This document shows, in pieces, positions 16,473 through 28,729 of a stretch of 64,000 bases of DNA (positions within the stretch are counted from its first letter, which is position 1; every line of letters starts with the position of its first letter). The stretch is taken from the NCBI RefSeq assembly GCF_000093025.1, contig NC_014207.1:1612001-1676000 (forward strand), given 5' to 3'. The translations under genes were made by a program, and so were the position numbers. Source of the DNA: Methylotenera versatilis 301. GTDB lineage: Bacteria > Pseudomonadota > Gammaproteobacteria > Burkholderiales > Methylophilaceae. A model generated the notes under the pieces. The model was not told where the DNA came from and did no database searches. It saw only the letters and a list, made by a program, of their open reading frames with translations.

Positions 16473-18236
16473 ATGACTGTCAACTCAACCACCACAGAAA
16501 CCTTTATCCCTAGCAAGGATGCCTCACTAGAATCATCTATACGCACGTTACAAGGCAAGCTAGAAGCGCTGGGCATTCATGTGGAAGAGAAGTCATGGTT
16601 AAATGAGATTGAAGGCATTTGGTCTGTGCATGTGATTGACCGAGACTGCACTCGTCTTTTTACTAACGGCAAGGGCGCATCTCAATTAGCGGCTCGTGCA
16701 AGTGCGTTGGGCGAATATTTTGAACGCCTAAGTACTAACTACTTTTGGACGCATTTTTACTTAGGCGAAACCATCGCCAATAAAGAATTTGTACATTATC
16801 CAAATGAGCAATGGTTTCCCTTAAATAAAGGTAAATCTGCTGATAAATGGCCTGCTGGCTTGCTCACACCCGAGCTACAAAAATTCTATAACCCTGAAGG
16901 CACAGCGGTTGCCAGTCAATTAATTGATTTGAACTCAGGCAATAAAGAGCGCGGCATTTGCGCGATTCCATACACGCGTTTGCGTGACGATAAAATCGTT
17001 TATTTCCCAGTCAACCTGATTGGCAACTTGTATGTAAGTAACGGTATGAGTGCTGGCAATACACTGATGGAAGCGCGCACACAAGCGCTTGCAGAGATTT
17101 TTGAACGCGATATTAAATATAAAATCATACGCGAAGGCATTTGCTTACCTGATGTGCCAGAAGCTGTGATTAATCGCTTTCCACGCATTGCTGCGGGCAT
17201 TAAAGGTTTACGTGATGCAGGTTACGGTATATTAGTTAAAGATGCTTCCTTGGGCGGTCAGTACCCAGTAATGAACGTCACATTGCTGCACCCTGAAGAT
17301 CAAGGTTGTTTTGCCAGCTTCGGGGCACATCCGCGCTTTGAAGTGGCGCTAGAACGTGCATTGACTGAGTTACTTCAAGGTCGTGCGCTCGGCAGCTTAA
17401 AAGGCTTTGTCGCGCCAGGCTTTGACATGGAAGAGATTGCCGATTCGCAAAACTTAGAAATCCATTTTGTGGATTCTAGCGGTGTGATTAGCTGGGATTT
17501 CTTACGCAGCACGCCAGATTATGAATTTGTCGATTGGAACTTCGGCACGACAACAGAAGAAGATTACAACTGGTGCGTCAACACTATCCACAATAGTGGA
17601 CATGATATGTATATTGCCGACTTTATGCACTTAGGCGTCTACGCTTGCCGTATCTTTGTGCCAGGCATGAGTGAAATCTATCCTGTAGAAGAATTGGAAT
17701 GGGAAAACAATACGGTTGGCAATTTAGTGCGCCCTTTTGCTTTGCGACTACAAGATTTACAACAAGAAGAGTCAGCCGAGCTACTTGAAACTTTACTGGA
17801 TTTAGATTTAGCCGATGAATTACCAGTCACCACCTTGATAGGTCTATGCGCCGACGCTGGTACCACTTGGGTAGACTTGCGTGCAGGTGAGCTTAAAACG
17901 CTCGCAGCCTTAGCCGCAGGTGACATAGACAATATCTTAGATGGCTGCGCTTGGATTGCTCAATTTAACGAGCTTCCTCCAGCACGCGCCAAAGTTTATC
18001 GCTGCATTGCCAACTTAGTGCAGATTGAGGAAGAGCTTGAGAATGGCGATCCCGCCTTATTTGCCGCTAATCTGGCGCTTATGTATGGCAAAGACACCTT
18101 GGCTCAAGCCCAGCGCCTAGTGAATCAAGAGGAACAATATTTTGGTTTAGAGAATTTAGGGCCGAATATGGAAGCCAGCAAAATGCACCAACAGTTATTA
18201 GCTGCATATCGCAAAGTATGGAAACAACTTAATTAA
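16473..18236 (+). CDS. ycaO: YcaO-domain protein, S12 methylthiotransferase accessory factor
   Basis: At 587 residues this matches E. coli YcaO in length and sequence style, including 'WSVHVIDRDCTRLFTNGKGA' and 'QLAARASALGEYFERLSTNY' near residues 50-90. YcaO proteins use an ATP-grasp-like fold to activate backbone amides. The E. coli member assists RimO in beta-methylthiolation of ribosomal protein S12, and the C-terminal half here has the extra tetratricopeptide-like region typical of that branch rather than a natural-product cyclodehydratase. No precursor peptide, dehydrogenase or exporter gene is adjacent, which argues against an azoline biosynthesis cluster. The ECF sigma gene starts 94 bases downstream with its own promoter. 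Confidence 0.88.
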   Translation: MTVNSTTTETFIPSKDASLESSIRTLQGKLEALGIHVEEKSWLNEIEGIWSVHVIDRDCTRLFTNGKGASQLAARASALGEYFERLSTNYFWTHFYLGETIANKEFVHYPNEQWFPLNKGKSADKWPAGLLTPELQKFYNPEGTAVASQLIDLNSGNKERGICAIPYTRLRDDKIVYFPVNLIGNLYVSNGMSAGNTLMEARTQALAEIFERDIKYKIIREGICLPDVPEAVINRFPRIAAGIKGLRDAGYGILVKDASLGGQYPVMNVTLLHPEDQGCFASFGAHPRFEVALERALTELLQGRALGSLKGFVAPGFDMEEIADSQNLEIHFVDSSGVISWDFLRSTPDYEFVDWNFGTTTEEDYNWCVNTIHNSGHDMYIADFMHLGVYACRIFVPGMSEIYPVEELEWENNTVGNLVRPFALRLQDLQQEESAELLETLLDLDLADELPVTTLIGLCADAGTTWVDLRAGELKTLAALAAGDIDNILDGCAWIAQFNELPPARAKVYRCIANLVQIEEELENGDPALFAANLALMYGKDTLAQAQRLVNQEEQYFGLENLGPNMEASKMHQQLLAAYRKVWKQLN

Positions 18237-18251
18237 ACTTTAAGATGTTTT

Positions 18252-18273
18252 TGCAATCTCGCTATAGATTGCA
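18252..18273. repeat. Perfect inverted repeat overlapping the sigma-gene promoter
   Basis: TGCAATCT (18252-18259) and AGATTGCA (18266-18273) form a perfect eight-pair dyad with a six-base spacer. Its right arm runs into the TGCATCC -35-like element at 18270-18276. It could be an operator for a dimeric regulator or a hairpin at the end of ycaO; no T-run follows, which favours an operator. Confidence 0.45.
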
Positions 18274-18298
18274 TCCAAAAGCACATATGTTGCGTAAT
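18270..18298 (+). promoter_or_regulatory. Candidate ECF-sigma promoter upstream of the sigma gene
   Basis: TGCATCC at 18270-18276, sixteen bases, then CGTAAT at 18293-18298. The same bipartite motif with identical spacing occurs at 20689-20717 before the lipid operon. The layout suits ECF promoters (a CC-containing -35 and a CGT -10). Initiation near 18305 would leave a leader of about 26 bases before ATG 18331 and imply autoregulation. Confidence 0.6.
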
Positions 18299-18330
18299 GC
18301 TTCATATGATAGTTAATTTGATTAAATACC

Positions 18331-18930
18331 ATGGTTGAACTCATGTACGTGACACCTACGCATCTGCACGACCTCTCGCCGCCTTCGGAAATGCTCGCGC
18401 TTATTGGCAGGATGGCGAAAAGAGATGAGTCGTCGCTTGAGGCTTTTTACGATCTGACCTTATCAAAAGTCTATGGGCTAGCGCTTAAAATCACGCGCCG
18501 CCACGACTTAGCTGAAGATGTTGTAGGGGATACTTATTGGCAGGTTTGGCATCAGGCGGTTAAGTTTGATATTAGCCGAGGCGTACCTATGGCTTGGCTA
18601 ATGCTTATTTGTCGAAGCCGCGCTTTAGATGCGTTGCGTAAGTTAGACGAAGCTGACTCTCATCCCGAACCTAGTGAGTTAATTGTAGAGCCCGGGTTTT
18701 CATGTCCTACACTTGAAAAAATGCTCACTTTAGAAAGAGACTCGGCGCTACATGCTGCTATGGCAAAACTTTCCGCCATTCAAAGACAGCTTATTGCACT
18801 CGCTTTTTTTAAAGGTTATACCCATCAAGAAATTTCTGAACAGACCAACTTACCGTTAGGTTCTGTTAAATCCCATATTAAACGTGCACAAGCGTCATTA
18901 AAAGATGCGCTATCGCATCAGGAGGCCTAA
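18331..18930 (+). CDS. ECF RNA polymerase sigma factor, RpoE/ChrR-type
   Basis: A 199-residue group 4 sigma factor. Region 2 spans about 30-100, with the 'LEAFYDLTLSKVYGLALKIT' and 'AEDVVGDTYWQVWHQAVKFD' blocks. Region 4 (about 135-190) carries the helix-turn-helix 'GYTHQEISEQTNLPLGSVKS' and ends in IKRAQASLKDAL. The sequence resembles ECF factors paired with ChrR-type cupin anti-sigmas, known in Rhodobacter for the singlet-oxygen response. The next gene is such a cupin protein, starting two bases after this stop, with a strong GGAGG site inside the 3' end of the sigma gene. A bipartite motif upstream recurs before the lipid operon, so autoregulation and control of that operon are likely. A later in-frame ATG at 18343 is an alternative start. 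Confidence 0.88.
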   Translation: MVELMYVTPTHLHDLSPPSEMLALIGRMAKRDESSLEAFYDLTLSKVYGLALKITRRHDLAEDVVGDTYWQVWHQAVKFDISRGVPMAWLMLICRSRALDALRKLDEADSHPEPSELIVEPGFSCPTLEKMLTLERDSALHAAMAKLSAIQRQLIALAFFKGYTHQEISEQTNLPLGSVKSHIKRAQASLKDALSHQEA

Positions 18931-18932
18931 TC

Positions 18933-19382
18933 ATGGCTAAAGATAAAGACTTAAATGTTTTAGAGGCATTAGATATCACAGTTGCTGGTGCGGTAGCATC
19001 AAGCCTACTACCAACCATTCCCGCTCCTGAAGTAGCAAGCAGAATGAAAGCAACCTTACTCAACAGAATTAAGACCTCTGAAAGTAGCCATCGCTTTATG
19101 TTTGCGGACCAAGGGGATTGGCGAACAATTGCAGAAGGCGTGCAAGTCAAGGTGTTGAGGCAAGAAAGTGATAGTCGCTCCGTTTTAGTTAAAATGGCCG
19201 CGAATAGCTTCTTACCAGCGCATGAACATGATGTTGATGAAGAAGCCATCGTGCTGGAAGGCGAAGTTTGGTTGGAAGACATTTTATGTGGCATTGGTGA
19301 TTACCACCTTGCACACGCAGGCAGCTCACATCGTGAGATTCGCACGGACCATGGCTGCTTACTATTTATTAGAAACGCCTAG
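18933..19382 (+). CDS. ChrR-like cupin protein, candidate anti-sigma factor
   Basis: A 149-residue protein whose C-terminal two thirds is a ChrR-type cupin. The metal ligands H97, H99, E103 and H133 are present with spacings 2, 4 and 30, the same as those I recall for Rhodobacter ChrR (141, 143, 147, 177). The N-terminal zinc-binding anti-sigma domain looks shortened: the first 96 residues contain no cysteine, and the only cysteines are C119 and C142 or nearby. A short helix with LPTIPAPEVASRMKATLLNR near 26-45 remains. It follows the sigma gene by two bases with a GGAGG site eight bases before ATG. It may control the sigma factor without a zinc fold, or act only as a sensor; which of these holds is unknown. 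Confidence 0.82.
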   Translation: MAKDKDLNVLEALDITVAGAVASSLLPTIPAPEVASRMKATLLNRIKTSESSHRFMFADQGDWRTIAEGVQVKVLRQESDSRSVLVKMAANSFLPAHEHDVDEEAIVLEGEVWLEDILCGIGDYHLAHAGSSHREIRTDHGCLLFIRNA

Positions 19383-19418
19383 GTTTTTTAAGTTACTCAT
19401 CCACATTAAACAAACACT

Positions 19419-20507
19419 TTGAACAAATATAGCGTAGTTCTTATGATGATATTTGGTTTCGTAGCAACGCCAAGCGTTGCTGAGGAATCATACTCAGCAC
19501 CATTCTGGCTCCCTAGCGGGCACCTGCAAACGATTTATCCAGCAGTATTCGCTGCGAAACAAGGAGTGAAGTATCGTCGTGAACGCTGGGAGTTAGATGA
19601 CGGCGACTTTATGGATGTGGATTGGCTAGACAATGAGAATAGCAGCTTACAAAGTACCGATGTTGAAAGTACTCCAACTGTCGTGTTATTTCATGGCCTA
19701 GAAGGCAGCTCTAAAAGCCACTACGCTTTAGCTTTAATGGCTAACTTGCAAGCAAAAGGTTGGCGTGGCGTGGTGGTTCATTTCCGCGGCTGCTCTGGTG
19801 AAAACAATCGTTTACCGCGCGCCTATTTTGCTGGAGATAGCGTTGATATAGAAATGGCATTGTCTCGCGTTAAAAAAACCGTGGGCAATGCACCTGTATA
19901 TGCTGTTGGCGTTTCTTTAGGCGGTAATGCACTGTTAAAGTGGCTGGGAGAGTCAGGTGAACATGCCGCTGAAATCATTGAATCGGCAGCTGCTATTTCA
20001 GCCCCCACAGACTTGGCCGCCTGCGGAGAAGCATTAGACAAGGGGCTTAATCGCGTGCTTTACACCCCGATGTTTGTGAATAGCATGCGACCAAAAGCCC
20101 TTGAAAAAGCGCGACAATTTCCCGGTTTATTGGATGAGGAAAAGATTAAATCTGCAAAGACTATTCGTGAGTTTGATACTTACGTCACCGCAAAGCTACA
20201 TGGCTTCGTGGATGCTGACGATTATTGGGCTAAAAATGCGGCTAAGCCATGGCTACCGTATATCCAAATTCCAACTTTGATTCTTAACGCAAAAAACGAC
20301 CCTTTTATTCCTGTAGAGTCCTTACCTGATCAAACATCTGTTTCTAATACCGTGACATTAGAAACCACTGAAGAAGGCGGACATGTGGGCTTCTTAAGCT
20401 CGCCCTTCCCTGGCAATAACAATTGGCTTCCACAACATATCATTCATTACTTTGAATCCTTGCAATTAAAATCCACGATTACTAGTCACTTAACTATTGA
20501 CCAGTAA
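19419..20507 (+). CDS. YheT-like alpha/beta hydrolase
   Basis: A 362-residue alpha/beta hydrolase of the YheT/EMB8 (UPF0017) group. The family opening 'SAPFWLPSGHLQTIYPAVFA' lies near residues 26-45. With TTG 19419 as start, the catalytic triad reads S166 (in GVSLGGN), D294 (NAKNDPFIP) and H322 (EGGHVGF). The first 22 residues are hydrophobic and resemble a signal sequence, which is unusual for this mostly cytosolic family. ATG 19443 is an alternative start and neither has a clear ribosome site. The gene begins 36 bases after the ChrR-like gene and is probably read with it, suggesting a lipid or ester substrate in the same stress response. The true substrate is unknown. Confidence 0.82.
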   Translation: MNKYSVVLMMIFGFVATPSVAEESYSAPFWLPSGHLQTIYPAVFAAKQGVKYRRERWELDDGDFMDVDWLDNENSSLQSTDVESTPTVVLFHGLEGSSKSHYALALMANLQAKGWRGVVVHFRGCSGENNRLPRAYFAGDSVDIEMALSRVKKTVGNAPVYAVGVSLGGNALLKWLGESGEHAAEIIESAAAISAPTDLAACGEALDKGLNRVLYTPMFVNSMRPKALEKARQFPGLLDEEKIKSAKTIREFDTYVTAKLHGFVDADDYWAKNAAKPWLPYIQIPTLILNAKNDPFIPVESLPDQTSVSNTVTLETTEEGGHVGFLSSPFPGNNNWLPQHIIHYFESLQLKSTITSHLTIDQ

Positions 20508-20601
20508 TCGAAGTTTAAATCATCAGTCCAACTTACCACTATTGACCAGCTAAAGTTGCCAGCAATACTGCTGTGCCATTAGTCTTTCCAACATCACTGT
20601 A

Positions 20602-20634
20602 TATCTGTGACAACTTAATATCTGTAACAACTTA
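20602..20634 (+). repeat. Tandem 16-base direct repeat upstream of the ECF promoter
   Basis: TATCTGTGACAACTTA at 20602-20617 and TATCTGTAACAACTTA at 20619-20634 differ at one base and are offset by 17 bases. The second copy ends 54 bases before the -35-like element. The pair could be binding sites for an additional regulator. Confidence 0.5.
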
Positions 20635-20688
20635 GCGATCGAAACTGAGCTATCGATTCGCTATGTGTCTAAACTAATACCTGTACAT

Positions 20689-20717
20689 TGCATCCATAAA
20701 CAGAAATGCCACGTATA
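20689..20717 (+). promoter_or_regulatory. Candidate ECF-sigma promoter of the lipid operon
   Basis: TGCATCC (20689-20695), sixteen bases, CGTATA (20712-20717). The preceding bases (ATT) and several spacer bases also match the motif before the sigma gene at 18270-18298. Initiation near 20724 would give a leader of about 90 bases to ATG 20815. Confidence 0.6.
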
Positions 20718-20814: not shown

Positions 20815-21873
20815 ATGCAATTAACAAGTTTAGCCATTAAGTTAGCGGAAAAAGGTTTAGTGCCTGATAGCGTAATCAGGACTGGTATTAGACAATTATC
20901 AGAAACTCGGCTTAAAGAAATCCGTGCGGGCAATTGCGAAGCTGGTGCGCAAATTGAAGCTGAGTTCGTAACCGCTATGAACAAAGCGCCTATTGCCTTA
21001 GTGCCAGAACTCGCAAATGCACAACATTACGAACTACCAACAAAGTTTTTCGAATTATGTTTAGGACAACACCGTAAGTACAGTAGCTGCTTCTGGCTGC
21101 CTGAGACATCGTCTTTAGATGAAGCCGAAGCCAATGCACTGCGTATGAGTTGCGAGCATGCAGATTTGCAAGATGGTCAACAAATTCTAGAACTAGGCTG
21201 CGGCTGGGGATCACTTACATTATGGATGGCAGCGCACTACCCAAACAGCCAAATTACAGCGGTTTCTAATTCAAACTCGCAACGCGAACACATTACGGCC
21301 ACCGCCGCACAGCGTGGACTTAAAAATATTACGGTCATCACTTGTGACATGAACAACTTTTCACCTAGTAACTTTTCAATCAATCAAGCATTTGATCGGG
21401 TGGTATCGGTTGAGATGTTTGAACACATGCGTAACCACAAACTTTTATATGGAAAAGTGCATGATTGGTTAGTGCCAGGTGGCAAGTTTTTCATGCATAT
21501 ATTTGTGCATCGCTCAACGCCATATGCATTTGAAGTGCAAGGTGATGACGATTGGATGAGCCAGTTTTTCTTCTCTGGCGGCATGATGCCAAGCGATGAC
21601 TTGCCTTTACATTTTCAGGAGAAATTAAAGTTAAACAAGCGCTGGCGCTGGGATGGCACGCATTACGAAAAAACGGCTAATGCTTGGTTGGAGAATATGG
21701 ATAAGCATGAAAATACTATCACGCCGATTTTAAAAGAAACCTATGGAGCAGGCGAAGCTGTCAAGTGGCGTAATCGCTGGCGTATATTTTATATGGCTTG
21801 TGCAGAGCTATTTGGTTATAAAAACGGCCAAGAGTGGTGGGTTTCTCACTACCAGTTTGAGCGCCCTGCATAA
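20815..21873 (+). CDS. Cfa/CNMT-like SAM-dependent methyltransferase
   Basis: A 352-residue methyltransferase of the cyclopropane fatty acid synthase superfamily, nearest in style to the coclaurine N-methyltransferase-like branch. The substrate-side block 'HYELPTKFFELCLGQHRKYS' lies near residues 66-85, and the SAM-binding motif ILELGCGWGSLTLWMA near 123-138. A VVSVEMFEHM block follows. It transfers a methyl group from SAM, probably to an unsaturated acyl chain of a membrane phospholipid. ATG 20815 is chosen because AAGGGTG precedes it and the ECF promoter lies between it and the upstream in-frame TTG at 20665. It is first in a nine-gene operon; the DUF2878 gene follows after 13 bases. Substrate and product are inferred from context only. 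Confidence 0.85.
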   Translation: MQLTSLAIKLAEKGLVPDSVIRTGIRQLSETRLKEIRAGNCEAGAQIEAEFVTAMNKAPIALVPELANAQHYELPTKFFELCLGQHRKYSSCFWLPETSSLDEAEANALRMSCEHADLQDGQQILELGCGWGSLTLWMAAHYPNSQITAVSNSNSQREHITATAAQRGLKNITVITCDMNNFSPSNFSINQAFDRVVSVEMFEHMRNHKLLYGKVHDWLVPGGKFFMHIFVHRSTPYAFEVQGDDDWMSQFFFSGGMMPSDDLPLHFQEKLKLNKRWRWDGTHYEKTANAWLENMDKHENTITPILKETYGAGEAVKWRNRWRIFYMACAELFGYKNGQEWWVSHYQFERPA

Positions 21874-25415: not shown

Positions 25416-26669
25416 TTGAAAATCGCCATTATAGGTAGCGGTATTGCAGGTAACACTATTGCATACCACTTAAACAAACAACACGATGTCACCGTATTTG
25501 AGGCAGAAAGCCACATTGGCGGCCATACGCATACACATCACATCAAGCATGAAGGCAATGAATATAATGTAGATACTGGCTTTATTGTATTCAATGACCG
25601 CACGTACCCTAATTTCATCGCCTTGCTTGATGAGTTAAAGGTGGCTTGGCAGCCCAGCGAAATGAGCTTTAGTGTTCAATGTGAAAAAACTGGCTTGGAA
25701 TATAACGGCACCAATTTAAACAGCCTATTTGCGCAACGCCGCAATCTATTTAAGCCGTCATTTCACCAAATGATTCGCGATATTTTACGTTTTAACAAAA
25801 CTTCACTTGAACTACTCACTGATGGTAACGAAATTAAATTGGGTGATTATCTAAAGCAAGGTAAATACAGTCAGCAGTTTATTGACCATTACATCATCCC
25901 TATGGGTTCGGCCATTTGGTCTACTGAAGCGCGCCAAATGTTAGATTTTCCAGCGCGCTTTTTTGTACGATTCTTCCATCATCACGGCATGTTAACGGTG
26001 AATAACAGGCCGCAATGGCGTACGATTACTAATGGCTCAGCTAGCTATGTGAGCGCATTGACTGAAAGTTTTAAAGACAAAATCAGACTCAACACCCCTG
26101 TAGAAAGCGTGCGCAGATTAGCTTCATCTGTGCGTGTTAAGCCATTACATGGTGATGAAGAAAAATTTGATTACGTATTTTTTGCCTGCCATAGCGACCA
26201 AGCATTAAAACTACTTAGCGATAAAAAAGCGAATGAAATTGAAATACTGAGTGCGATTCCTTATCAACAAAACACCATATTTTTGCACCATGACGTTTCA
26301 CTGATGCCTAAGCGCAAATTAGCATGGGCAGCTTGGAATTACCATGTTACCAATCCGCATGCTGAGCAAGTTGCTGTGACTTACAACATGAATATTCTGC
26401 AAAATCTACAATCAAATGAGCCTCTGCTTGTGACGTTAAACCACACTAAGTTTATTAACCCCGCCAAAGTCATTAAGCGCCTGAAATACATGCACCCTAT
26501 TTACACTTTGGCCGGTGCCGCAGCACAAGCTAGGCATGCTGAAATTAGCGGTAAGAATAGAACAGGTTTTGCTGGCGCATACTGGCGCAACGGCTTTCAT
26601 GAAGATGGCGTTGTAAGTGCTTTAGAAGCCATTAAACATTTTGAACAAGCCAATATTGGTAAAGCTTAA
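25416..26669 (+). CDS. FAD-dependent amine-oxidase-like oxidoreductase
   Basis: A 417-residue flavoprotein with the Rossmann dinucleotide motif at the extreme N-terminus (MKIAIIGSGIAGNTIAYHLN) and a second FAD contact (AESHIGGHTHTH near residues 29-40). It belongs to the NAD/FAD-binding amine oxidase group that is regularly encoded with DUF1365 and Cfa genes. Flavoproteins of this operon type have been linked to acyl desaturation in the Rhodobacter furan fatty acid pathway (UfaD), and orthology needs testing. Start is TTG 25416 with GGGA about twelve bases upstream; the TTG is required to retain the beta strand before GSGIAG. The DUF1365 gene begins immediately after the stop. Confidence 0.86.
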   Translation: MKIAIIGSGIAGNTIAYHLNKQHDVTVFEAESHIGGHTHTHHIKHEGNEYNVDTGFIVFNDRTYPNFIALLDELKVAWQPSEMSFSVQCEKTGLEYNGTNLNSLFAQRRNLFKPSFHQMIRDILRFNKTSLELLTDGNEIKLGDYLKQGKYSQQFIDHYIIPMGSAIWSTEARQMLDFPARFFVRFFHHHGMLTVNNRPQWRTITNGSASYVSALTESFKDKIRLNTPVESVRRLASSVRVKPLHGDEEKFDYVFFACHSDQALKLLSDKKANEIEILSAIPYQQNTIFLHHDVSLMPKRKLAWAAWNYHVTNPHAEQVAVTYNMNILQNLQSNEPLLVTLNHTKFINPAKVIKRLKYMHPIYTLAGAAAQARHAEISGKNRTGFAGAYWRNGFHEDGVVSALEAIKHFEQANIGKA

Positions 26670-27458
26670 ATGCCCAATAGCGCTATTTATGAAGGCTTTG
26701 TAAAACACCTAAGATTCCAGCCTCAGCCGCACGGCTTTCGCTACAAGGTCTTTATGATGTATTTAGATTTAGATGAATTGCCAGATTTATTCAACAATTC
26801 TAAAAACTGGTCTTATGCAACTAAGAATTGGGCATGGTTTAAGCGCTCTGACTACTACGGTGACGCCCAAAAACCACTTAAACAAGAGATTAGTACGCTA
26901 GTCCAACAAGCAACAGGTTCAGAGCCGCGTGGTGCAATCCGACTTCTCACCAATATGCGCTATTTCGGACATTGCTTTAATCCTGTGAGCTTTTACTATT
27001 GTTTTGAAGCAGATGGCATTACCTTGCAAGCTGTCGTCAGCCATATCACCAACACGCCTTGGGGCGAAGATTACGCTTATGTGCATGATTTTAATCATGA
27101 CTCTAACACTGGAAAAACCATTAAAAAAACTAGAAATGGTGAAATTTCAATATTTAAATTTAACAAACAGTTTCATGTATCGCCCTTTATGCCTATGGAC
27201 ATTCAATACGACTGGGCATTTAAGCATGAAGCCAATCAACTACTCATTCATATGAAAAACTTTAAAGATGGCGAACAAGTTTTCAACGCTACATTAGCCT
27301 TAGAACGTAAAGAAATCACTCAAAGTAGCCTCAATTGGATTTTGATTCATTACCCACTCATGACTATTAAAGTCGTTGCTGCCATTTACTGGAACGCATT
27401 AATGCTTTGGATTAAGCGCGTGCCCTTTTACTCAAACCCAAAACAAGTCACTAAATAA
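26670..27458 (+). CDS. DUF1365 family protein
   Basis: A 262-residue DUF1365 protein. The family opening 'IYEGFVKHLRFQPQPHGFRY' lies at about residues 5-24 and is followed by FMMYLDLDEL. The middle has the 'YFGHCFNPVSFYYCFEADGI' block near 98-117 and a 'SHITNTPWGEDYAYV' block after it. No catalytic role is established to my knowledge, but the gene almost always accompanies the flavin oxidoreductase and Cfa-type methyltransferase that flank it here. The start directly abuts the preceding stop, and its TAA shares a base with the next ATG (27458), so all three are translationally coupled and likely work on one substrate. Confidence 0.88.
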   Translation: MPNSAIYEGFVKHLRFQPQPHGFRYKVFMMYLDLDELPDLFNNSKNWSYATKNWAWFKRSDYYGDAQKPLKQEISTLVQQATGSEPRGAIRLLTNMRYFGHCFNPVSFYYCFEADGITLQAVVSHITNTPWGEDYAYVHDFNHDSNTGKTIKKTRNGEISIFKFNKQFHVSPFMPMDIQYDWAFKHEANQLLIHMKNFKDGEQVFNATLALERKEITQSSLNWILIHYPLMTIKVVAAIYWNALMLWIKRVPFYSNPKQVTK

Positions 27459-28729
27459 TGATGATTAATCCCACACTTCAGAAAGAAACCTTAACCGCCA
27501 GCTTAAAACAAAAAAGCCGTTCAAAATGGGTGGCTGATTTTGCAAGGTCGCAAATACTTAAGCGCTTACAGCTTTTACAAAAAGGTCATTTAACACTGGT
27601 TGATGGCGCTGAACAGCACAGATTTGGCAACAGTGACGGTATAAATGCCACTATTTATGTACATGACTCACGCTTTTATGGCGAGATCGCTTTTGGAGGC
27701 AGCATAGGCGCTGGCGAAGCTTATATGCTCGGTTATTGGTCAGCGGATAATCTTACCGAGGTGATTCGCTTGATGTGTGTTAATCAATCTGTGATGGATA
27801 CGCTTGAAGGCGGCTACCAATGGCTGACTAAGCCATTTTTGCAAGTATTACATTGGCTAAATAGCAATACCACCGAAGGTAGTCGCAAGAATATTGCAGC
27901 ACATTATGATTTAGGTAATGACATGTTTGCCCTGTTTTTAGATCCAACCATGATGTATTCAAGCGCGATTTTTAGCGCAGATACACCCAACTTACAAGCG
28001 GCCTCTGAACTAAAGCTTAAAACTATTTGCGATAAATTAGACTTAAAATCGACAGACCATGTAGTTGAAATCGGCACTGGCTGGGGCGGCTTTGCTATTT
28101 ATGCAGCAACACATTACGGTTGCCGTGTCACCACTACCACGATCTCTAAGCAGCAATATGAATTAGCGAAAGTCAGAGTGAAGGCTGCTGGCTTGGAAGA
28201 TAAAATCACCCTATTACTTGAAGACTATCGCCATTTAACTGGCACTTTTGATAAGTTAGTTTCTATTGAGATGATTGAAGCAGTCGGGCATCGGTTTTAT
28301 GACACCTATTTTGCTAAAGTTGGCTCATTGCTTAAAGCAGATGGCTTGGCATTGATTCAAGCCATCACCATTGCGGATCAACGCTATGAAAATGCAAAGA
28401 AATCCGTCGATTTTATTCAACGTTACATATTTCCAGGCTCATGTATTCCATCAAACACTGCCATGCTCAATAGCGTGACTAAAACGAGCGATTTGCGATT
28501 GTTTGATTTAGAAGATATAGGTCCGCATTACGCTACAACATTAAAGATTTGGCGAGAAAACTTTTTTGCTAATATTAAAGAAGTTCGCAAACTCGGATAC
28601 ACGGAAGAGTTTATTAAAATGTGGGATTTTTATTTAAGCTATTGCGAAGGCGGCTTTATGGAGCGCGCTTTAGGTGACGTACATTTGTTGTTAGCAAAGC
28701 CAGAAAATCGAAGAGAGGCATTAATTTAA
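27458..28729 (+). CDS. cfa: Cyclopropane-fatty-acyl-phospholipid synthase family methyltransferase
   Basis: A 423-residue Cfa-type enzyme close to the length of E. coli Cfa (382) plus an N-terminal extension. The Cfa-specific 'AAHYDLGNDMFALFLDPTMM' block lies near residues 148-167, the SAM motif VVEIGTGWGGFAIYAA near 204-219, and the catalytic-region blocks MIEAVGHRFYDTYF and 'QRYIFPGSCIPS' follow. It methylates or cyclopropanates double bonds of phospholipid acyl chains. It is last of the tight part of the lipid operon and the second methyltransferase encoded in it, so the two may act on different positions or products. The start overlaps the DUF1365 stop by one base. Cfa-like proteins in such loci may form methylated rather than cyclopropane products. 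Confidence 0.88.
   Translation: MMINPTLQKETLTASLKQKSRSKWVADFARSQILKRLQLLQKGHLTLVDGAEQHRFGNSDGINATIYVHDSRFYGEIAFGGSIGAGEAYMLGYWSADNLTEVIRLMCVNQSVMDTLEGGYQWLTKPFLQVLHWLNSNTTEGSRKNIAAHYDLGNDMFALFLDPTMMYSSAIFSADTPNLQAASELKLKTICDKLDLKSTDHVVEIGTGWGGFAIYAATHYGCRVTTTTISKQQYELAKVRVKAAGLEDKITLLLEDYRHLTGTFDKLVSIEMIEAVGHRFYDTYFAKVGSLLKADGLALIQAITIADQRYENAKKSVDFIQRYIFPGSCIPSNTAMLNSVTKTSDLRLFDLEDIGPHYATTLKIWRENFFANIKEVRKLGYTEEFIKMWDFYLSYCEGGFMERALGDVHLLLAKPENRREALI

What the first reader, a model, noticed from the sequence alone, without database searches (positions are those of the whole stretch)
18270..20717. Two near-identical ECF-type promoters define a sigma-controlled lipid regulon
TGCATCC-N16-CGTA(A/T) occurs at 18270-18298, upstream of the ECF sigma gene, and at 20689-20717, upstream of the first lipid gene. 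Spacing is identical, the flanking ATT matches, and several spacer bases match too. Sharing this motif implies that the sigma factor activates both its own operon and the nine-gene lipid operon. The -35 is related to, but differs from, the TGATCC I recall for Rhodobacter RpoE.
Basis: partly seen in the sequence, partly recalled or inferred. Interest (0 to 1): 0.75.

Follow-up and report, generated by a model that had tools for sequence, protein, structure and literature searches.

The report
Sigma-factor promoter pair controlling lipid operon
Two matching DNA start signals, one before a stress sigma-factor gene and one before a nine-gene fatty-acid-modifying operon, are kept in related bacteria, so the sigma factor very probably switches on both itself and the lipid genes; a similar circuit is known elsewhere, but here it uses a different sigma factor and a partner protein lacking the usual zinc domain.

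Summary
TGCATCC-N16-CGTA(A/T) lies at 18270-18297 and 20689-20716 and nowhere else in the 3.06-Mb genome. Comparative data support the reading. Of 187 genomes of the family, 16 carry the orthologous sigma. TGCATCY-N16-CGTA precedes it in 15 of 16. It precedes the first lipid gene in 6 of these 16 genomes, and in 0 of 72 examined genomes without this sigma; the 10 misses are all one genus. The link persists where sigma and lipid operon lie on different contigs. The nine lipid genes resemble the furan-fatty-acid set (UfaD, DUF1365/UfaO, UfaM) and a nine-gene cluster that RNA-seq placed under RpoEc-ChrR in Stenotrophomonas (PMC11832516). What differs: the -35 is TGCATCY rather than the ECF11 TGATCC; the sigma is neither clearly ECF11 nor SigK-like; its cupin partner has no recognisable zinc anti-sigma domain. 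In relatives the same operon sits behind a SigK/RskA-type pair, a MerR-B12 regulator, or neither. I judge it a new variant of a known kind. The promoters and regulon are well supported in silico; how the cupin works is inferred; nothing was measured.

The parts
18270..18297 (+). Promoter 1: -35-like TGCATCC (18270-18276), 16-base spacer, -10-like CGTAA (18293-18297); 33 bases before the sigma ATG
   Evidence: conserved upstream of 15 of 16 sigma orthologues
18331..18930 (+). ECF sigma factor, 199 aa, sigma-70 regions 2 and 4
   Evidence: Pfam PF04542 and PF08281; NCBIfam best model SigK subfamily, 125 bits, below its cut-off of 226
18933..19382 (+). ChrR-like cupin, 149 aa, putative sigma regulator; cupin at residues 58-147, no HxxxCxxC motif
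   Evidence: Pfam PF12973; motif test on 12 orthologues; Foldseek best match ChrR 2q1z on a model of mean pLDDT 69
19419..20507 (+). Alpha/beta hydrolase, third gene of the sigma triad
   Evidence: Pfam PF00561, NCBIfam NF008218 above cut-off; follows sigma and cupin in the relatives fetched
20689..20716 (+). Promoter 2: TGCATCC (20689-20695), 16-base spacer, CGTAT (20712-20716); 98 bases before the ATG at 20815
   Evidence: present at the orthologous place in 6 of 16 sigma-bearing genomes and 0 of 72 others
20815..21873 (+). Lipid gene 1: CFA-synthase-like methyltransferase (CMAS); the longer ORF from 20665 is not supported by relatives, which align from the ATG at 20815
   Evidence: PF02353
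21887..22423 (+). Lipid gene 2: DUF2878
   Evidence: PF11086
22420..23199 (+). Lipid gene 3: DUF1295
   Evidence: PF06966
23202..23837 (+). Lipid gene 4: DUF6134
   Evidence: PF19630
23873..24430 (+). Lipid gene 5: lipocalin
   Evidence: PF08212
24452..25396 (+). Lipid gene 6: fatty acid desaturase
   Evidence: PF00487
25416..26669 (+). Lipid gene 7: FAD-dependent amine-oxidase/desaturase-like protein, UfaD candidate
   Evidence: PF01593, PF13450; UfaD described as NAD-FAD-binding with likeness to phytoene desaturases in PMC7380195 (passage)
26670..27458 (+). Lipid gene 8: DUF1365, UfaO candidate
   Evidence: PF07103; UfaO contains DUF1365 (PMC7380195 passage)
27458..28729 (+). Lipid gene 9: CFA-synthase-like methyltransferase, UfaM candidate
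   Evidence: PF02353

Best explanation
An ECF sigma factor (18331-18930) recognises TGCATCY-N16-CGTA. It transcribes its own operon (sigma, ChrR-like cupin, hydrolase) from promoter 1 and the nine-gene lipid operon from promoter 2. In unstressed cells the cupin keeps the sigma idle; a photo-oxidative or lipid-peroxide signal, probably read by the metal-binding cupin, frees it. The lipid operon then remodels phospholipid acyl chains, most likely by methylation, desaturation and oxygenation to furan fatty acids. Shown here: the two sites, their conservation and the gene families. Inferred: sigma-promoter pairing (strong), furan product (moderate), cupin as inhibitor and sensor (moderate), the signal (weak to moderate).
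For: The two sites are unique in the genome. TGCATCY-N16-CGTA lies before 15 of 16 sigma orthologues. It lies before the lipid operon in 6 of 16 sigma-bearing genomes and 0 of 72 others, including G047, where sigma triad (C29) and lipid operon (C119) are on separate contigs. In G142, G143 and G144 hexamers stay while spacers drift. In 20 hand-picked sites matching the pattern the A at position 8 is also invariant (the other fixed positions were selected for). Outside the family, 5 of 18 related sigma loci in the order have TGCATCY-N16-CGTA within 450 bp upstream. Operon gaps are -4 to 35 bases. No sigma-70-like site overlaps either promoter. Domain set matches UfaD/UfaO/UfaM (PMC7380195 sections and passages). 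In Stenotrophomonas RpoEc-ChrR drives a nine-gene lipid cluster with two CFA synthases, FAD oxidoreductase, desaturase and lipocalin (PMC11832516 sections 15 and 20).
Against: No transcription data. In 10 genomes of g15 the orthologous sigma is present but the lipid operon lacks the site. G162's sigma has no site of its own; it lies behind DUF3034 and globin genes with a TGAATCT-N15-CGTA site. Type-B (SigK/RskA-like) sigmas have related sites (TGCATCT-N16 in 2 and TGAATCT in 2 of 12 family loci), so cross-recognition by another ECF sigma is possible; the own genome has other ECF-like sigmas (9 region-2 matches in all). The cupin has no recognisable anti-sigma domain. 37 of the 125 genomes with the first lipid gene were not examined upstream.
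Confidence: 0.85

Rival explanations
1. The two promoters are real ECF promoters but are read mainly or also by a different ECF sigma of the cell, the neighbouring sigma being coincidental or overlapping.
For: Type-B sigmas in relatives have similar sites; a TGAATCT variant precedes a bufferin-like operon in this genome while two close relatives have TGCATCT there.
Against: The lipid-operon site occurs only where this sigma occurs (6 of 16 against 0 of 72). The own genome has no second sigma matching this one at E <= 1e-20. Sigma self-promoters carry the same motif in 15 of 16.
Confidence: 0.09
2. The cupin is not an anti-sigma factor but a co-activator, chaperone or enzyme made with the sigma.
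For: No zinc anti-sigma domain in 12 of 12 orthologues by motif; best sequence matches in the PDB are KdgF cupins; N-terminal 27 residues modelled at pLDDT under 50.
Against: Foldseek's best match is ChrR over 136 columns, TM 0.55, though the rmsd of 14 shows that the halves are placed differently; it is next to the sigma in all family loci where both were seen and in 19 of 21 distinct loci of the order.
Confidence: 0.3
3. The match is a chance pair without regulatory meaning.
For: The pattern was derived from the two sites; one-mismatch versions are about as common as the reversed control.
Against: Placement and conservation across the family and order; about 1.4e-4 sites expected per 400 bp.
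Confidence: 0.01

Closest known systems
ECF11 RpoE-ChrR singlet-oxygen regulon (Rhodobacter; Pseudomonas PSPTO_1043; Shewanella RpoE2)
   Same: ECF sigma beside a ChrR-type cupin; N16 spacing and CGTA -10; lipid genes, including furan-fatty-acid genes, among core targets (PMC6852236 sections 15 and 16).
   Different: -35 TGCATCY against TGATCC; cupin without zinc anti-sigma domain; no other core members such as photolyase were found beside it in the genes listed (none was sought genome-wide).
Stenotrophomonas maltophilia RpoEc-ChrR-ChrA and its nine-gene cluster (PMC11832516, sections 15 and 20 read)
   Same: ECF sigma and ChrR operon plus a nine-gene lipid operon with two CFA synthases, FAD oxidoreductase, desaturase and lipocalin, up about 165 to 700-fold without ChrR and dependent on RpoEc.
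   Different: Third gene is an NAD(P)-binding oxidoreductase, not a hydrolase; cluster is divergent and ordered differently. The sequences were not compared here, and the four hypothetical proteins fit only by number and stated location.
SigK-RskA (ECF18/ECF19)
   Same: Nearest NCBIfam model and nearest solved sigma structure by a small margin.
   Different: Partner is a soluble cupin, not RskA; the two SigK cysteines are absent in 12 of 12. The type-B pairs that precede the same operon in relatives are the SigK/RskA-like ones.
Anti-ECF sigma 'ChrR' Maqu_0586, PDB 3o14
   Same: Titled ChrR; aligns to this cupin from its residue 14 on, leaving no room for an N-terminal zinc domain.
   Different: 223 residues; only the title was seen; function untested as far as I know (recall).

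Membership tests
ECF sigma factor family | sigma-70 regions 2 and 4 only | tested here: met
   PF04542 and PF08281/PF04545 in 199 aa
ECF11 / ChrR system | ChrR partner with N-terminal zinc anti-sigma domain (HxxxCxxC) | tested here: not met
   absent in 12 of 12 family orthologues; present in 1 of 21 distinct order-level partners, L274; no genome of 187 passes the TIGR02451 ChrR cut-off, Caulobacter control does
ECF11 / ChrR system | C-terminal ChrR-type cupin | tested here: met
   PF12973 E 7.3e-17
ECF11 / ChrR system | promoter TGATCC-N16-CGTA | tested here: not met
   -35 is TGCATCY; spacing and CGTA agree
ECF11 / ChrR system | sigma clusters with ECF11 | tested here: inconclusive
   profile scores 106.6 bits to R. 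sphaeroides RpoE, 115.7 to SigK; no tree with reference groups was built
SigK-RskA (ECF18/19) | RskA-type anti-sigma partner | tested here: not met
   partner is Cupin_7; RskA_C is found in the type-B partner L120
SigK-RskA (ECF18/19) | two cysteines near 133 and 183 (94% of ECF18, 56% of ECF19; PMC7509140 section 11) | tested here: not met
   absent in 12 of 12 type A, present in 8 of 8 type B
Furan-fatty-acid (Ufa) pathway | UfaM (CFA-like), UfaD (FAD), UfaO (DUF1365) encoded together | tested here: met
   families by Pfam at 25416-28729; no direct sequence comparison with the characterised enzymes
Furan-fatty-acid (Ufa) pathway | makes methylated furan fatty acid | not testable with these tools
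   needs lipid analysis
Sigma-cupin regulon described here | sigma autoregulation from TGCATCY-N16-CGTA | tested here: met
   15 of 16 in the family, 5 of 18 order-level loci

The most novel reading that the evidence does not exclude
A family of ECF sigma factors spread through the order is governed by stand-alone ChrR-type cupins that have lost, or never had, the zinc anti-sigma domain. They would bind the sigma through a short N-terminal helical segment and sense oxidised lipid or metal state with the cupin itself. In this lineage that system has taken over a furan-fatty-acid operon which in sister lineages sits behind a SigK/RskA-type pair or a B12-binding MerR regulator: repeated regulator exchange at one photo-oxidative lipid operon.
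Probability: 0.4. Interest if true: 0.62.

Novelty: new variant of a known kind. Interest (0 to 1): 0.45.

Why it matters
It gives a testable case of one lipid-remodelling operon passing between unrelated regulators while keeping, presumably, the same stress role. It also offers a ChrR-like regulator without the zinc domain that is usually taken to do the sigma binding, so it could show how much of singlet-oxygen sensing lies in the cupin alone. And it defines a promoter motif (TGCATCY-N16-CGTA) by which the regulon can be traced in many non-phototrophic bacteria.

Tried and rejected
Chance pair: rejected by conservation. Sigma-70 promoter: no sigma-70-like site overlaps either place. Longer first lipid ORF from GTG 20665: it would put the promoter inside the gene; relatives align from the ATG at 20815. 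Large regulon in this genome: the one-mismatch scan is barely above control. Of the five exact hits to TGMATCYA-N15-CGTAW, two are the promoters, one (677181) lies inside a gene on the other strand, one (2299719) precedes a bufferin-like operon and one (2066978) a short ORF. ECF11 or SigK membership: see Membership tests. Named relatives by genome-contig scan: the patterns were too general; 11 distant loci, mostly Paenibacillus and kin, not used. So the organism and its relatives remain unnamed; methylotrophic Methylophilaceae is my guess from recall and no call shows it. The cupin model is weak (pLDDT 69.4, N-terminus under 50), so the fold match is support, not proof. An earlier Fisher p of 1.8e-9 set genus g15 aside after the fact; the fair figure with all 16 sigma genomes is 1.5e-5. 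Literature: ten searches used. None listed a study of a stand-alone cupin ECF regulator or of a TGCATC ECF promoter, but most subscription papers are not held, and Dufour 2008 and the main ECF reclassification papers were not read.
Full report
What was checked. The two sites read TGCATCC-AAAAGCACATATGTTG-CGTAA (18270-18297) and TGCATCC-ATAAACAGAAATGCCA-CGTAT (20689-20716), with identical 16-base spacers and 9 of 16 spacer bases shared. The pattern occurs twice in the window against a mean of 0.00 in 100 shuffles, and twice in the 3,059,871-base genome against 0 for the reversed control. Dropping the last base adds one site at 1375930.

Anatomy. Promoter 1 lies 33 bases before the ATG of a 199-aa ECF sigma (18331-18930), followed after 2 bases by a 149-aa protein whose only Pfam match is the ChrR cupin (18933-19382), and after 36 bases by an alpha/beta hydrolase (19419-20507). 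Promoter 2 lies 98 bases before the ATG at 20815 of nine tightly packed genes (gaps -4 to 35 bases): CFA-synthase-like, DUF2878, DUF1295, DUF6134, lipocalin, desaturase, FAD oxidoreductase, DUF1365, CFA-synthase-like. No sigma-70-like site overlaps either promoter and the scan found no plus-strand terminator-like site between them.

Conservation inside the family. In 187 genomes, 30 have a sigma matching at E <= 1e-20: 16 'type A' (38-100% identity), which include every genome with the sigma-cupin pair that I fetched, and 14 'type B' (28-33%). L111 (G080) is cut by the contig end, so only its sigma was seen. TGCATCY-N16-CGTA lies within 450 bp upstream in 15 of 16 type A genomes; the miss is G162, where the sigma follows DUF3034 and globin genes that have a TGAATCT-N15-CGTA site. 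The first lipid gene has an orthologue in 125 of 187 genomes; I examined the 400 bp upstream in 88 of these. The motif is present in 6 of 16 type A genomes (G000, G142, G143, G144, G047, G162), 0 of 14 type B and 0 of 58 with neither (Fisher p 1.5e-5 for 6 of 16 against 0 of 72). All 10 type A misses are one genus, g15. About 1.4e-4 sites are expected per 400 bp. G047 is telling: its sigma triad is on contig C29 and its lipid operon on C119, yet both have the motif. Among the four closest genomes the hexamers persist while spacer bases change.

Further targets. In G142, G143 and G144 a DUF3034 and truncated-globin pair diverges from the lipid operon. It has its own site: TGCATCT-N16-CGTA in G142 and G143, TGAATCT in G144. 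Over the loci fetched, 9 of 13 DUF3034 genes have TGMATCY-N15/16-CGTA upstream (6 TGCATCY, 3 TGAATCT). The window lacks this pair at this place. Its genome's only DUF3034 gene (921902) is 46.6% identical to that of G142 and has no such site nearby. In g15 the second site precedes a DUF4394 gene by about 290-305 bp in 7 of 9 DUF4394 loci seen (8 family, 1 other), and in G062 it precedes DUF3034. In this genome a TGAATCT-N16-CGTAT site precedes a small cysteine-rich protein followed by two genes that I recall as bufferin-operon types, while G142 and G143 have TGCATCT at the same gene. These are leads.

Beyond the family. A cupin profile found matches in 21 of 399 genomes of the order, two of them in this family. 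In 19 of 21 distinct loci a sigma 30-53% identical lies next to the cupin. Five of 18 such sigma loci have TGCATCY-N16-CGTA within 450 bp upstream. Only 1 of 21 distinct partners (L274) has the HxxxCxxC zinc motif and a weak zinc-finger match. None of the 18 order-level regions of up to 19.5 kb shows a match to the lipid operon genes. So the sigma-cupin pair is widespread and its hold on the lipid operon looks local to this family. A tree sets type A apart from type B with strong support (98/95 and 100/99), but deep branches are unsure and no reference ECF groups were included.

What kind of sigma. The type A profile scores 115.7 bits to SigK and 106.6 to R. sphaeroides RpoE; the window protein alone scores 81.9 and 81.6. 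Type B scores 106 and 71.7, has both SigK-type cysteines in 8 of 8 and, in the one tested, an RskA_C partner; type A lacks the cysteines in 12 of 12. Type A is therefore neither clearly ECF11 nor SigK-like.

The cupin. Twelve orthologues keep the cupin histidines and glutamates (HxH, EE), two cysteines and a proline-lysine-rich N-terminal stretch, and none has HxxxCxxC. The model has low confidence at the N-terminus. Foldseek ranks ChrR 2q1z first (E 6.4e-9, TM 0.55, rmsd 14.3), followed by ordinary cupins. By sequence the best PDB matches are KdgF cupins and the 3o14 'ChrR'. I infer a cupin-based regulator of the sigma; its inhibitory role is not shown.

Function. UfaM, UfaD and UfaO make furan fatty acids in Rhodobacter and Rhodopseudomonas, UfaO being a DUF1365 protein (PMC7380195, sections and passages read). 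ECF11 regulons include furan-fatty-acid genes (PMC6852236 sections read). In Stenotrophomonas RNA-seq, a nine-gene cluster with lipocalin, two CFA synthases, FAD oxidoreductase and desaturase rises about 165- to 700-fold without ChrR and falls back without RpoEc (PMC11832516, sections 15 and 20; the transcriptome was done once). That is a close functional precedent and lowers novelty.

Regulator exchange. Within 3 kb upstream of the first lipid gene in the 88 genomes (some stretches shorter), 13 have a type-B sigma with RskA and 3 more RskA alone. Ten have a MerR-B12 protein (4 of them with the type-B pair). Type A sigma itself is within reach in 2, with G142, G143 and G144 showing its hydrolase, and one genome has only a hydrolase. 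Fifty-nine show none of the ten query proteins. MerR-B12 proteins of the LitR/CarH kind are light-responsive elsewhere, and ufaM is light-induced in Pseudomonas (PMC9758184, passages); that these are such proteins is inferred.

Verdict. The setting is a new variant of the ECF-ChrR lipid-stress circuit.

Noticed in passing
L102:10110-11657 (G142), L103, L104: DUF3034 and truncated-globin genes diverge from the lipid operon with their own sigma-type site; the pair is missing at this place in the window.
   Followed up: partly
G000:C1:2299719 (L165:5746, minus strand): TGAATCT-N16-CGTAT before a small cysteine-rich protein and two downstream genes that I recall as bufferin-operon types; G142 and G143 have TGCATCT there.
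   Followed up: partly
L117:12665-13627, also near the lipid operon in G174, G176, G178, G185, G183, G175, G181, G182, G032: MerR protein with B12-binding domains (Pfam on L117 only) right upstream of the same lipid operon in 10 of 88 genomes, suggesting light control.
   Followed up: partly
L120:4518-5785 and kin: SigK-like sigma with RskA-like partner directly before the lipid operon in 13 of 88 genomes.
   Followed up: yes
L122:4790-4816 and L123:2803-2829: TGCATCC-N16-CGTA about 38 bases before a trypsin-like protease with TPR repeats in G143 and G144; no such exact site at an orthologue was seen in this genome.
   Followed up: partly
L136:8806-9879 (G134): Only the hydrolase of the sigma triad remains next to the lipid operon; no sigma or cupin match, and no motif.
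   Followed up: no
L288 and L296 (G308, G408): Type-B sigma with RskA and type-A sigma with cupin lie side by side, with DUF3034 and globin diverging.
   Followed up: no
16473-18236: YcaO accessory factor for ribosomal protein S12 lies just upstream of the sigma gene; also in G142, G143 and G144.
   Followed up: no
G000:C1:2066978 (L164:5005, minus strand): TGAATCT-N16-CGTAT 69 bases before an 87-codon ORF of unknown kind.
   Followed up: no
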